This document shows, piece after piece, positions 2,063 to 5,304 of a DNA stretch of 27,693 nt. The first letter of the stretch is position 1. Each line of letters opens with the position of its first letter. Both the position numbers and the translations under genes were made by a program. The notes beneath the pieces were generated by a model. The model did not search any database. It saw nothing but the letters and a program-made list of their open reading frames with translations, and was not told the DNA's origin. The DNA comes from a virus. The stretch covers positions 1 to 27,693 of the IMG/VR virus record IMGVR_UViG_3300037175_000240, one strand, 5' to 3'.

Positions 2063-2218
2063 GTGGCCAAGGACATGGAGGCAGCTTTCAACCTGGATGC
2101 CGGGCGCATTAAAGAGAGCGAACGCTGGCCTGGTTTGAGGGCCAAAAGCAAGCAAAAGTGGCCCCGCAGGGCCCCGGCCAAGGCCAAAAAGGCCAAAAAA
2201 CACCGCCGCAAAGCCTGA
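2063..2218 (+). CDS. Possible tiny Lys/Arg-rich protein
   Basis: A frame open from 1943 ends with TGA at 2216-2218. The only plausible bacterial start with a purine-rich leader (aagggaga) is GTG 2063, giving 51 residues: a short helical start (VAKDMEAAFNLDAGRIKESE) and a very basic tail with Lys-Ala repeats (KAKKAKKHRRKA). The tail resembles nucleic-acid-binding ends such as histone H1-like tails. The reading frame continues upstream without a good start codon, so either a non-standard start is used or the 5' part is untranslated. Low confidence. Confidence 0.35.
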   Translation: MAKDMEAAFNLDAGRIKESERWPGLRAKSKQKWPRRAPAKAKKAKKHRRKA

Positions 2219-2234
2219 AAATACTAGAATCCTA

Positions 2235-2254
2235 CGGGCCCCTCAAAAGGCCCG
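2235..2254 (+). terminator. Weak hairpin upstream of terS
   Basis: CGGGCC (2235-2240) and GGCCCG (2249-2254) form a perfect 6-bp stem with an 8-nt loop. The following sequence (cagctttgtcg) has no proper T-run, so termination would be weak. It lies between the small-gene cluster and the packaging genes and may be an attenuator or an mRNA end. Confidence 0.35.
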
Positions 2255-2294
2255 CAGCTTTGTCGTTCCTGTCCAATTGCATAGAGGTAAAGCC

Positions 2295-2852
2295 ATGGGA
2301 AGGGAACAAACCCCCGCATTAGACCCCGCACTTGCGCGGGCCGAGAAAAAAGAGGCCAAGCGGCTGCACGCGGCCAAGGTGCTGGACATCACCAACCCGG
2401 AGATTTCGGCCAGGCTGGAGGTGGCGGCCATGGCCCTGGGCCAGGGTAAGAACGCCTGGCGGGCCCTGCAGGAGATGGACATACCGCTGCCCAACGGAGG
2501 CACGGCCAAAAGGCTGAGCCCCAGCCAGGCCGCGGTTTACGTCAAGCGGGCCAAGCTGGACCTGCTGACGGCCATGGCCAAGCCCAGGGCCGAGATGCTG
2601 GCCGAGTGCCTGGGCTACCTGCAGGAGGCCCTGCGCATGGCCGCCAAGAGCGGCAAGGCCAGCGAGCTGGTGGAGGTGGTGGACTACCAGAACCTGGTGC
2701 TGGGCCTGCCCAATCGTTCCACGGCCGCCCGCACCATCCACCTGCCCGTAGGGCCGCCACCCAAGACCAACGTGGGCGAGCTGAGCGATGACCAGCTGGC
2801 GGCAGTGATCCTGGCTGACCGCTCCACCAAAGCCGCGGCAGAAGATGCCTGA
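2295..2852 (+). CDS. terS: Putative terminase small subunit (TerS)
   Basis: The product is 185 residues. ATG 2295 is chosen because AGAGGT lies 7 nt upstream; an in-frame TTG at 2277 precedes the ribosome binding site. TerS recognises phage DNA and stimulates the TerL motor. The N-terminal ~30 residues are basic. Residues ~35-100 contain helices that fit a DNA-binding region (EISARLEVAAMALGQGKNAW, then a segment ending in SQAAVYVKRAKLDL), followed by a long helix (MLAECLGYLQEALRMA) suited to oligomerisation. The tail GELSDDQLAAVI resembles the common C-terminal motif of phage TerS proteins. The gene overlaps terL by 8 nt. The assignment rests mainly on position, size and composition, not on a strong motif. 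Confidence 0.65.
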   Translation: MGREQTPALDPALARAEKKEAKRLHAAKVLDITNPEISARLEVAAMALGQGKNAWRALQEMDIPLPNGGTAKRLSPSQAAVYVKRAKLDLLTAMAKPRAEMLAECLGYLQEALRMAAKSGKASELVEVVDYQNLVLGLPNRSTAARTIHLPVGPPPKTNVGELSDDQLAAVILADRSTKAAAEDA

Positions 2853-5304
2853 GCTGGTGACGGCAGGGATGGCGGCCGAACGGCTACTTGCCCGGCGCCA
2901 GGCGCGCGAGCACTTCCTGCCCTTTATCCAATTCACCAAACCCAACTATCAAGCCAACTGGCACCATGTACTGGCCGCCCGGGCGCTGGAGCGCTTTGAG
3001 CAGGCGGTGCGGGACCGCAAGAGCCCGCGCATGATCCTGCGGATGCCGCCCCGCGGTGGCAAGTCCGAGCAGGTGAGCCGCCGCTTCCCCGGCTGGGTGC
3101 TGGGCCGCAACCCGGAGTGGCAGCTCATCGGCACCAGCTATAATGACAAAATAGCTGCCGACATGGGCTCGGACGCCCGCACCATCATCGAGAGCCCGGA
3201 GTACCAGGAGCTTTTCGACACCCGCATCCGTTCCGACAGCTCAGCCAAGGACAACTGGCGCACGGAGCAGGGCGGCATTTACGTGGCGGCGGGCGTGGGT
3301 GGCGGCATCACGGGCCGCGGCGCACATTGTTTTCCAGCAGGGACGCAAGTCCTGACCGAGCAAGGTTGCATCCCTATCGAAAACTTGAATAATGGTGCCA
3401 CGTCCTGTAAAGTTATGACCTATGAAGAATCCACAGGAAAAACCCAGTTCAAAACAGTCCAAGCTTTCACCCGCCGTCAGGCAGTTGGGCTATACCGGAT
3501 CACCTCTGCCGCTGGCCGAGTGGTCACGGCTACGGGCGACCATCCTATCTGGACAGACCGTGGATATGTCCGAGCGGATTCACTTGCCCCCGGCGATCGT
3601 TTGTTGTGCACGGTGCAAAGCCAAAGTGGTGCGGATGGCGTTCGATGTGAGCAAGCACCTGCGAAGAAAGCTCGGGGATTTTTACTGCTCCAATGCGTGC
3701 TGGGCTGTGGCGCAAAACTTGAAAAAGTATGGCGTGAAAAAGTGCATTCATTGTGGGAGTCCTACGCCCACGGACCGGTGGTATGGAACCGCAAAAAAAA
3801 CATATTGTTCCAGGGAGTGTCTGGAAAATATCAGGCTGGAATTCAAAGCGAAACGCCGGGCGGCGTGGCCGACTATGACGTGTCAGGAGTGCGGATTGAC
3901 CAAGCAGGCCCCCCCAGGGAACAAGCTTCAATTCTGCGGGATGGACTGCAAGAACAGAGCGCACGCCCAAAAAATGACGGGCCGCGCGAATCCCGGATAC
4001 ATTCACGGCCTGTCCCCGTTGCGGACTCAACAGCATGCGGCCCCGGCATTCAGAACGGTGAAACCTCAAATCATCGAACGGGATGGGCACGCCTGCGCGA
4101 TATGTTCCAAAGGCGGGAACCTGCATGTTCACCACTTGGGACTCGACCCAAGAGACAACCGTTGGCAAAACCTGATAACGCTCTGCCCGTCATGCCACTT
4201 CACGCTTCACGGACACCAGAGGGCCAAGAGCCCCTTGAGACAGATTACGTTTCAAGCGTTGACCGCATTGCTGACACAGAAGGCGGGACCACGGTCTACG
4301 ACCTCCAGGTAGAAGGAAATCACAACTTTTTTGCCGATGGCTTTCTGGTCCACAACTGCCTCACCATTGACGACCCGTACAAGGATGCAGCGGACGCCTG
4401 GAGCGCCAACACCCGCAAGCGCATTTGGGACTGGCTAACCACCACGGCCCTCACCCGGCTGATGCCAGGCGGTGGCGTACTCATCTTGCTGACCAGCTGG
4501 CACGATGACGGCTTGGACAACAAGCTCATCCGCACCGCCAAGGAAACGGGTGAGGTGTGGGAGGTGATCGACATTCCTGCCATCATGGAGGCGGGCTACT
4601 CCGGGCGGCACCCGGAGGACTTACGCGGGGCCGGGGAGAGCTTTTGGACCAGCGCCTGGCCAGTGGAGGAGCTGGAAAAGACCCGGCGCCGCATCGGCCC
4701 CAACGCCTGGAGCGCCTTGTACCAACAGCGGGCCATTCCAGATGGCGGCACGATCATTGAGCGCCCCTGGATCAAATTGTGGGAGCGCCAGCCCGAGGGC
4801 CTGCAGGAGCTGATCCTGAGCTGGGACTTGGCGTTCAAGGGTAATCAGGACAGCAGCCGGGTGGCGGGCCACCTGTGGGGGCGCCGGGGCGGGGACTTTT
4901 TCATGCTGGCCCGCGACACCAAGGTGCGCGAGTTCCGCGAAACCCTCAGCGACTTCCTGGCCATGGCCAACAAGTACCCCAGGGCCACGGTCAAGCTGGT
5001 GGAGGACAAGGCCAACGGCCCGGCCCTCCAGTCCATGCTGCAGCACAGCGTGCCCGGCCTCAAGATGGTGCCCGTGGAGAAGGACAAAGAGGGGCGGCTG
5101 CGCGCCGTCAGCCCGGTGTTCGCCAGCGGCAACGTCTACCTGCCCAACCCATCCATCCATCCGTGGGCCGCCGAGGTGATTGAGGAGCTTGTGCGTTTTC
5201 CCAATTCAGAATATAACGATGACACGGACGCCCTGAGCCAGGCCTTGGCTTATTGGATCGTCCCAGGCTACGGGCCGACCCGCTGGAGAAACTGGACGCT
5301 ATGA
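2845..5304 (+). CDS. terL: Terminase large subunit (TerL) precursor with intein
   Basis: The precursor is 819 residues; removing the intein (162-504) leaves a 476-residue TerL, normal for the family. TerL is the ATP-driven packaging motor and the nuclease that cuts concatemers at the portal. The Walker A-type loop is PPRGGKS at residues 68-74, and Walker B (LTIDDP) is at 506-511, with the intein splitting GRGAH from CLTIDD. The RNase H-like nuclease acids are D661 in SWDLAFKG, E720/D721 in VEDKANG, and D792, D793 and D795 in NDDTDA. The ATG at 2845 overlaps terS by 8 nt. Terminase activity requires intein splicing, since the insert separates Walker A from Walker B. The TGA overlaps the portal ATG (ATGA). 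Confidence 0.95.
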   Translation: MPELVTAGMAAERLLARRQAREHFLPFIQFTKPNYQANWHHVLAARALERFEQAVRDRKSPRMILRMPPRGGKSEQVSRRFPGWVLGRNPEWQLIGTSYNDKIAADMGSDARTIIESPEYQELFDTRIRSDSSAKDNWRTEQGGIYVAAGVGGGITGRGAHCFPAGTQVLTEQGCIPIENLNNGATSCKVMTYEESTGKTQFKTVQAFTRRQAVGLYRITSAAGRVVTATGDHPIWTDRGYVRADSLAPGDRLLCTVQSQSGADGVRCEQAPAKKARGFLLLQCVLGCGAKLEKVWREKVHSLWESYAHGPVVWNRKKNILFQGVSGKYQAGIQSETPGGVADYDVSGVRIDQAGPPREQASILRDGLQEQSARPKNDGPRESRIHSRPVPVADSTACGPGIQNGETSNHRTGWARLRDMFQRREPACSPLGTRPKRQPLAKPDNALPVMPLHASRTPEGQEPLETDYVSSVDRIADTEGGTTVYDLQVEGNHNFFADGFLVHNCLTIDDPYKDAADAWSANTRKRIWDWLTTTALTRLMPGGGVLILLTSWHDDGLDNKLIRTAKETGEVWEVIDIPAIMEAGYSGRHPEDLRGAGESFWTSAWPVEELEKTRRRIGPNAWSALYQQRAIPDGGTIIERPWIKLWERQPEGLQELILSWDLAFKGNQDSSRVAGHLWGRRGGDFFMLARDTKVREFRETLSDFLAMANKYPRATVKLVEDKANGPALQSMLQHSVPGLKMVPVEKDKEGRLRAVSPVFASGNVYLPNPSIHPWAAEVIEELVRFPNSEYNDDTDALSQALAYWIVPGYGPTRWRNWTL
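3328..4356 (+). other. Class 1 intein within TerL (343 residues)
   Basis: Splice junctions are visible in the TerL frame. The first residue is C162 in block A (CFPAGTQVLTEQG), block B has T230-G-D-H233 in TATGDHPIWTDRG, block F reads TVYDLQVEGNHNFF, and the end is FLVHN with H503 and N504 followed by C505 as the +1 nucleophile. All four class 1 catalytic positions are present, so protein splicing is expected. The N part (~95 residues) and C part (~40 residues) together have mini-intein size. The ~210 residues between them in this frame look like non-domain filler rich in Pro, Arg, Gly and Ser; the endonuclease occupies this DNA in another frame. Base composition is less GC-rich than the flanking terL sequence, consistent with horizontal acquisition. 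Confidence 0.93.
3566..4312 (+). CDS. HNH homing endonuclease nested in +1 frame of the intein
   Basis: The product is 248 residues from ATG 3566, in the +1 frame relative to terL and ending at TAG 4310-4312. The frame is open from an earlier ATG (3422), but that DNA encodes conserved intein block residues in the other frame, so the later start is preferred; GGACAG lies 9 nt upstream. Three tandem CxxC...CxxxC modules (C14/C17-C41/C45, C60/C63-C81/C85, C106/C109-C124/C128) are probably zinc-binding DNA-recognition modules. The HNH nuclease is at about residues 170-216: C177xxC180, H189-H190, N202 in NLITLC, and C207xxC210-H211 with H215. HNH homing enzymes nick or cut intein-less alleles to spread the element. 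The ends of the gene overlap blocks B and F, exactly where an in-frame endonuclease would sit. Confidence 0.88.
   Translation: MSERIHLPPAIVCCARCKAKVVRMAFDVSKHLRRKLGDFYCSNACWAVAQNLKKYGVKKCIHCGSPTPTDRWYGTAKKTYCSRECLENIRLEFKAKRRAAWPTMTCQECGLTKQAPPGNKLQFCGMDCKNRAHAQKMTGRANPGYIHGLSPLRTQQHAAPAFRTVKPQIIERDGHACAICSKGGNLHVHHLGLDPRDNRWQNLITLCPSCHFTLHGHQRAKSPLRQITFQALTALLTQKAGPRSTTSR

What the first reader, a model, noticed from the sequence alone, without database searches (positions are those of the whole stretch)
3328..4356. Intein whose homing endonuclease is encoded out of frame
In the TerL frame there is a complete class 1 intein (C162, T230/H233, H503-N504, C505), but its central ~210 residues show no domain. 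The same DNA read in the +1 frame encodes a 248-residue protein with three CxxC...CxxxC modules and a full HNH motif. Its boundaries fall at blocks B and F, exactly where in-frame endonucleases sit. Thus a splicing element and its mobility enzyme are overprinted: splicing needs one frame, homing the other, and both stay open. At ordinary base composition, ~250 codons without a stop in a non-selected frame would be improbable (my rough estimate is well below one in a thousand), so the intein frame is probably under selection. It may be a new intein arrangement; I know of no characterised example.
Basis: partly seen in the sequence, partly recalled or inferred. Interest (0 to 1): 0.92.

Follow-up and report, generated by a model that had tools for sequence, protein, structure and literature searches.

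The report
Intein with overprinted homing endonuclease gene
Inside a phage DNA-packaging gene sits a self-splicing protein insert whose DNA, read one base further on, also encodes the DNA-cutting enzyme that probably spreads it; dozens of unrelated phages keep both readings open by avoiding certain codons, an arrangement I could not find described for any intein.

Summary
The TerL gene (2845-5304) holds a complete class 1 intein (3328-4356) just before Walker B. The +1 frame (ORF 3422-4312, likely start 3566) encodes a zinc-ribbon HNH nuclease over the intein's non-splicing middle.

Relatives in two isolated phages (Gordonia phage Clown, Synechococcus phage S-EIV1) and about 40 viral and bacterial contigs have the same frame relation at about 30-50% identity. 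In 42 non-redundant cases synonymous shuffling predicts 366 stops in the intein frame; there are none. Free-standing relatives show no depletion.

In the overlap only the HNH protein is conserved; the intein frame is kept open. The +1 relation is the only sense frame that synonymous choice can always keep open; the rule is no codon ending in T before AA/AG/GA, seen 0 of 2097 times.

An HNH-independent survey of this site found 45 full-length inteins, all with the +1 HNH, plus mini-inteins, some with HNH relics, and no in-frame endonuclease. Clean empty sites exist at 98-99% TerL identity. Splicing, translation and cutting are inferred.

Closest prior art: the out-of-frame HNH in a phage methylase (ShiLan, 2025), without intein. 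One actinophage-intein preprint could not be read.

The parts
2845..5304 (+). Terminase large subunit (TerL) gene interrupted by the intein; one open frame
   Evidence: Terminase_6C 3.7e-10, TIGR01630 3.6e-18
2845..3327 (+). TerL N-extein, Walker A to just before Walker B (ends ...GGGITGRGAH)
   Evidence: collinear with intein-free TerLs L242 and L243
3328..4356 (+). Class 1 intein, 343 aa (C1, T69xxH72, H342-N343; +1 Cys at 4357)
   Evidence: Intein_splicing; residues invariant in 33 sequences; Hint fold, pLDDT about 95
3328..3600 (+). N-terminal splicing half (blocks A and B)
   Evidence: TIGR01445 5.8e-9; AF2 pLDDT mostly above 90
3601..4224 (+). Overlap: intein frame has no recognisable domain and is largely low confidence; +1 frame encodes the HNH nuclease
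4225..4356 (+). C-terminal splicing half (blocks F and G)
   Evidence: TIGR01443 5.2e-10
3422..4312 (+). Longest +1-frame ORF holding the HNH gene (296 aa)
3566..4312 (+). HNH homing endonuclease gene from the likely start ATG (inside TAT-GTC of the intein motif GYV), 248 aa; no good Shine-Dalgarno
   Evidence: an ATG at the same offset occurs in Clown, L029, L030, L117 and L120
3605..3955 (+). Zinc-ribbon modules of the HNH protein (C14/C17, C41/C45, C60/C63, C81/C85, C106/C109, C124/C128)
   Evidence: cysteines invariant or nearly so in 35 sequences
4094..4213 (+). HNH catalytic core (C177xxC180, H189-H190, N198, N202, C207xxCH, H215)
4357..5304 (+). TerL C-extein, Walker B (CLTIDDPYKD) and nuclease domain

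Best explanation
This is a mobile class 1 intein in the Walker B site of phage TerL. Its homing endonuclease is a separate gene overprinted in the +1 frame on the stretch between the N and C splicing halves. Ribosomes reading the TerL frame make a TerL-intein precursor whose middle is a mostly unstructured by-product; the Hint halves fold around it and splice TerL. Ribosomes initiating internally in the +1 frame make a free zinc-ribbon HNH nuclease, which cuts intein-free TerL alleles at the same site during co-infection, so that repair copies the element in. Selection acts on the HNH protein and on openness of the intein frame. Openness costs no amino acids: a stop can arise only where an HNH codon ending in T precedes AA, AG or GA, and every amino acid has a codon not ending in T. 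After invasion the HNH can be lost by deletion, leaving a mini-intein; two low-GC relatives instead have the gene broken into a split intein flanking the HNH. Shown computationally: the arrangement, its conservation, stop depletion, HNH constraint, empty alleles, relics. Inferred: splicing, HNH translation, cleavage and homing.
For: Same frame relation in Clown and S-EIV1 and in over 40 non-redundant loci, none in frame. 0 stops against 366 expected in 42 loci, while the third frame has 440 against 384. Control: 42 free-standing HNH relatives carry 470 stops against 507 expected in the same companion frame. Substitutions between close pairs fall at HNH codon position 3 (for example 9, 6, 38), and intein-frame identity equals third-frame identity. 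T-ending codons before AA/AG/GA: 0 of 2097, against 26.5% elsewhere and 27.5% in free HNHs; this is the only sense frame with no forced stop. All splicing residues invariant. AF2: Hint halves about 95 pLDDT, middle mostly below 50; the HNH frame folds at mean 83.6. HNH-independent survey: 45 full-length inteins all with +1 HNH, 5 with partial HNH, 12 mini-inteins, some with relics. Empty sites in TerLs 98-99% identical, exact to the base. HNH distance follows Hint, not TerL (partial correlations 0.31 and 0.06).
Against: No expression, splicing or cleavage data. The start codon is not conserved across the family, and the window copy lacks a good Shine-Dalgarno. The HNH core is only inferred to be a homing enzyme; its target is unknown. 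The 42 loci were chosen for an open intein ORF, though the only alternative found was two split loci. The survey query was built from overprinted members, so a distant intein with an in-frame endonuclease at this site could have been missed.
Confidence: 0.85

Rival explanations
1. The HNH is made as an N-intein fusion by programmed +1 ribosomal frameshifting rather than by internal initiation.
For: No conserved start codon or strong Shine-Dalgarno in the window; in many members the +1 ORF is open well upstream of block B.
Against: In L014 and L030 the +1 ORF opens only after block B (offsets +49 and +7), while others (L009, L010, L020, L091) have ATG plus a Shine-Dalgarno-like sequence. No slippery site was looked for systematically.
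Confidence: 0.12
2. Sequencing or assembly indels put an ordinary in-frame HNH intein out of frame.
Against: Same frame relation in two isolate genomes and over 40 loci across 31-69% GC; no stop in the intein frame in any.
Confidence: 0.01
3. The insert is not spliced but tolerated in TerL, as proposed for the ShiLan insertion in a methylase.
For: ShiLan-like elements carry out-of-frame HNHs without an intein (PMC11855218); overprinted HNHs in methylases without detected intein blocks were also seen here (L140, L142, L160).
Against: All class 1 splicing residues are invariant in 33 sequences, the Hint fold is confident, and the site is TerL's ATPase Walker B. Other TerL inteins splice experimentally, one of them at Walker B though class 3 (PMC5050341).
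Confidence: 0.04
4. The HNH acts in DNA packaging with terminase, as terminase-adjacent HNH proteins do, not in homing.
For: It overlaps terL, and HNH proteins assist terminases in many phages (Kala 2014, listed in the references of PMC10448857).
Against: It lies in an intein at one exact site, is absent from mini-intein and empty-site relatives, and carries many zinc ribbons.
Confidence: 0.06

Closest known systems
[quoted passage not shown]
   Same: HNH with zinc fingers hidden in another frame of an insert that stays open in the host frame; patchy distribution
   Different: No intein or intron blocks there, insert thought to be retained; host is a methylase. Here a complete class 1 intein is overprinted, in TerL
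Inteins with in-frame homing endonuclease (for example mycobacteriophage TerL inteins, PMC5050341)
   Same: Hint halves with the nuclease stretch between blocks B and F; TerL Walker B was already a known site (TerL1-e, which is class 3)
   Different: Nuclease is in the +1 frame and presumably made separately; no in-frame endonuclease found at this site in this family
Fractured genes: split inteins flanking a homing endonuclease gene (Dassa 2009; known from its citation, text not held)
   Same: Endonuclease as its own gene between intein halves; L017 and L018 relatives match this layout
   Different: In the window the intein is contiguous and presumably cis-splicing, with overlapping rather than separate frames
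Mini-inteins lacking an endonuclease
   Same: Same splicing halves and same TerL site (12 found)
   Different: They lack the HNH; several still show HNH relics in the +1 frame
Group I intron-encoded HNH homing endonucleases (I-HmuI type)
   Same: Endonuclease ORF inside a self-removing element, separately translated
   Different: Here removal is at protein level, so the host frame must stay open through the endonuclease gene

Membership tests
Class 1 intein | Cys/Ser1, block B TxxH, penultimate His-Asn, +1 Cys/Ser/Thr | tested here: met
   C1, T69xxH72, H342-N343, +1 Cys; invariant in 33 sequences
Class 1 intein | Hint fold | tested here: met
   Pfam 8e-16; AF2 pLDDT about 95; Foldseek to DnaX and RecA mini-inteins
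Class 1 intein | Precise insertion in a conserved host motif with empty alleles | tested here: met
Class 1 intein | Self-splicing activity | not testable with these tools
   Needs a splicing assay
Intein with in-frame homing endonuclease | Endonuclease domain fused in the intein reading frame | tested here: not met
   No domain in frame; HNH in +1 frame in all 45 full-length members
HNH homing endonuclease | HNH core and DNA-binding modules | tested here: met
   Invariant H189, H190, N202, H211; HNH_3 in 19 of 35 members; zinc ribbons
HNH homing endonuclease | Cuts the allele lacking the element at the insertion site | not testable with these tools
   Only presence/absence polymorphism seen
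ShiLan-type out-of-frame HNH insertion | HNH in another frame than the open host frame | tested here: met
ShiLan-type out-of-frame HNH insertion | No splicing domain in the insert | tested here: not met
   Complete intein present
Fractured gene with split intein | Host gene in two ORFs, endonuclease gene between | tested here: not met
   Window TerL is one ORF; met in L017 and L018

The most novel reading that the evidence does not exclude
Overprinted inteins are a distinct, widespread class of mobile intein: in this TerL Walker B family the endonuclease is always a separate +1-frame gene, held open at no amino-acid cost by a simple codon rule. They feed two other intein types, mini-inteins by deletion of the HNH and split inteins by breakage of the intein frame.
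Probability: 0.7. Interest if true: 0.9.

Novelty: new variant of a known kind. Interest (0 to 1): 0.84.

Why it matters
Inteins are taught as one polypeptide with the endonuclease in frame. Here the endonuclease is a separate overlapping gene, so its dose, start and decay are uncoupled from the host protein, and annotation misses it (Clown and S-EIV1 list only a terminase). It gives a clean natural case of overlapping genes in which one frame is selected only to stay open, with an explicit codon rule that explains why one frame is used. It also suggests a testable route from mobile inteins to mini-inteins and split inteins.

Tried and rejected
In-frame domain in the intein middle: none by Pfam, NCBIfam or AF2. 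A single-protein scan of viral contigs with the window HNH found nothing; alignments were needed. A 17-sequence HNH alignment was too diverse to search with. A universal start codon or Shine-Dalgarno for the HNH: not found; an ATG 56 bases before the block B His occurs in a subset only. Foldseek of the HNH model against PDB gave no hit below 0.001, only weak HNH-domain matches (McrA, DotN, Cap5). Close relatives of the window TerL: only two at 30-36% identity, both intein-free, so recent mobility could not be shown for this copy. Plasmids held only HNH relatives in Streptomyces annotated as HNH endonucleases. The preprint by Gosselin and others on non-canonical actinophage inteins (10.1101/2025.01.02.630785) is not held; it may already mention the Clown intein.

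Full report
WHAT IS THERE. The window is the packaging and structural module of a contractile-tailed phage: TerL, portal, head morphogenesis, protease, major head protein, tail sheath, tape measure and baseplate. The TerL gene 2845-5304 is one open frame. Residues 162-504 (3328-4356) are a class 1 intein placed directly before Walker B (GGGITGRGAH / CLTIDDPYKD). The +1 frame over the same DNA holds an ORF 3422-4312 that encodes, from ATG 3566, a 248-residue protein with zinc ribbons and an HNH core.

IT IS A FAMILY. tblastn of the two frames separately against phage genomes hit the same place in Gordonia phage Clown and Synechococcus phage S-EIV1; in both, the HNH ORF is +1 to the TerL-intein frame, and both records annotate only a terminase. 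Alignment-based scans of viral and bacterial contigs, scored with HMMs for HNH and for the N and C intein halves, gave over 40 non-redundant loci with the HNH nested +1 inside an open intein ORF, from low to high GC (33-66% in the tested overlaps), and none with the HNH in frame. Bacterial carriers include contigs assigned to Fictibacillus, Armatimonadetes, Polaromonas and Bacteroidetes. All 40 with both intein ends resolved are TerL insertions at Walker B.

NOT CHANCE. For 42 loci I held the HNH protein fixed and shuffled synonymous codons in the part of the HNH that overlaps neither splicing half. Expected stops in the intein frame: 366; observed: 0. Third frame: 440 observed, 384 expected. 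For the window alone P = 0.0007. Free-standing relatives of the same HNH family, the natural control, show 470 stops against 507 expected in the same companion frame, and the two split loci 60 against 58.7. The 42 were selected as having an open intein ORF, but the only HNHs flanked by intein blocks without one were the two split loci.

WHAT IS SELECTED. Between close pairs, differences fall at HNH codon position 3 (L110/L111: 9, 6, 38), and in every identity band the intein-frame amino-acid identity in the overlap is about that of the untranslated third frame. So the HNH protein is conserved, while the intein frame there is merely kept open. AlphaFold2 agrees: the intein frame has confident Hint halves and a largely low-confidence middle, while the HNH frame folds with mean pLDDT 83.6.

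WHY THIS FRAME. Enumeration shows that of the five possible companion frames only the used sense frame and antisense phase 0 can always be kept stop-free by synonymous choice. The other sense frame is forced to stop at Met followed by Ile, Met, Thr, Asn or Lys, and only 8 of 40 of these HNH proteins could use it. In the used frame a stop needs an HNH codon ending in T before AA, AG or GA. Overprinted genes have 0 of 2097 such cases, against 26.5% T-ending codons elsewhere and 27.5% at such positions in free-standing relatives.

LIFE CYCLE. A survey based on the intein C end plus TerL, not on the HNH, gave 62 non-redundant complete inteins at this site: 45 full-length (315-460 aa), all with the +1 HNH; 5 with a partial HNH still in +1; 12 mini-inteins (117-158 aa), several with recognisable relics (L203, L228, L182). 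The query was built from overprinted members, so very distant inteins may be missed. In S-EIV1-like phages, TerLs 98-99% identical to an intein-bearing one have an exactly empty site (SKRSHL / CIIDD), among 53 empty relatives. HNH distances follow Hint distances rather than TerL (partial 0.31 and 0.06). This is the pattern expected of a homing element that decays after fixation. L017 and L018 (30-32% GC) carry the alternative solution: TerL-N-intein with a stop, a separate HNH ORF, then a C-intein-TerL ORF with its own ATG, a fractured gene.

EXPRESSION. How the HNH is made is the weakest step. Candidate starts differ between subfamilies: a group has an ATG with a Shine-Dalgarno-like sequence 56 bases before the block B His; the window, Clown, L029, L030, L117 and L120 share an ATG 25 bases after it, without a strong Shine-Dalgarno in the window. 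Internal initiation is favoured; frameshifting is not excluded.

PRIOR ART. Full-text searches found one close paper: the ShiLan insertion, an out-of-frame HNH in a phage methylase with no intein or intron detected (PMC11855218). TerL Walker B inteins were known in mycobacteriophages (TerL1-e), as splicing-competent class 3 inteins related to DnaB-b inteins (PMC5050341). No description of an intein with an overprinted endonuclease was found, but a preprint on non-canonical actinophage inteins could not be read and might cover Clown.

VERDICT. Confirmed and larger than claimed: a conserved family of inteins whose homing endonuclease is an overlapping gene. New variant of a known kind.

Noticed in passing
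L017 1-2286, L018 1020-3638: Split TerL genes: N-intein ends at a stop, an HNH ORF of the same family follows, then an ATG-started C-intein with TerL C-part; probable trans-splicing fractured genes.
   Followed up: partly
L004 (Escherichia phage BUCT618) 2164-2835 minus strand: A NUMOD4-HNH gene lies antisense inside a TerL intein near the same site; intein frame stays open. A second, unrelated way of overprinting.
   Followed up: partly
L156 3545-4231 in ORF 2208-4412: TerL intein at a different site, after the nuclease domain, with an HNH_3 gene in the other sense frame.
   Followed up: partly
L026 3337-6909: N6/N4 DNA methylase with two overprinted HNH genes in +1; the first insert has intein-like ends (CLSEDT...GNS), the second looks ShiLan-like.
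   Followed up: partly
L140, L142, L160, L032, L159: HNH genes overprinted in +1 within methylase or related ORFs without detected intein blocks, like the published ShiLan element.
   Followed up: no
L013 2827-5730 and L009 3124-5253: TerLs with a second intein: a mini-intein at Walker A (L013) and an intein start at TRWH/C (L009).
   Followed up: no
L022/L244/L247 against L245/L246/L248/L249/L250: S-EIV1-like TerLs with and without the intein at 98-99% identity; L245/L246 are 100% identical over about 300 bases upstream but 90-98% downstream, suggesting a conversion tract.
   Followed up: partly
window 2277-2852: ORF before TerL in the small-terminase position; no Pfam match.
   Followed up: no
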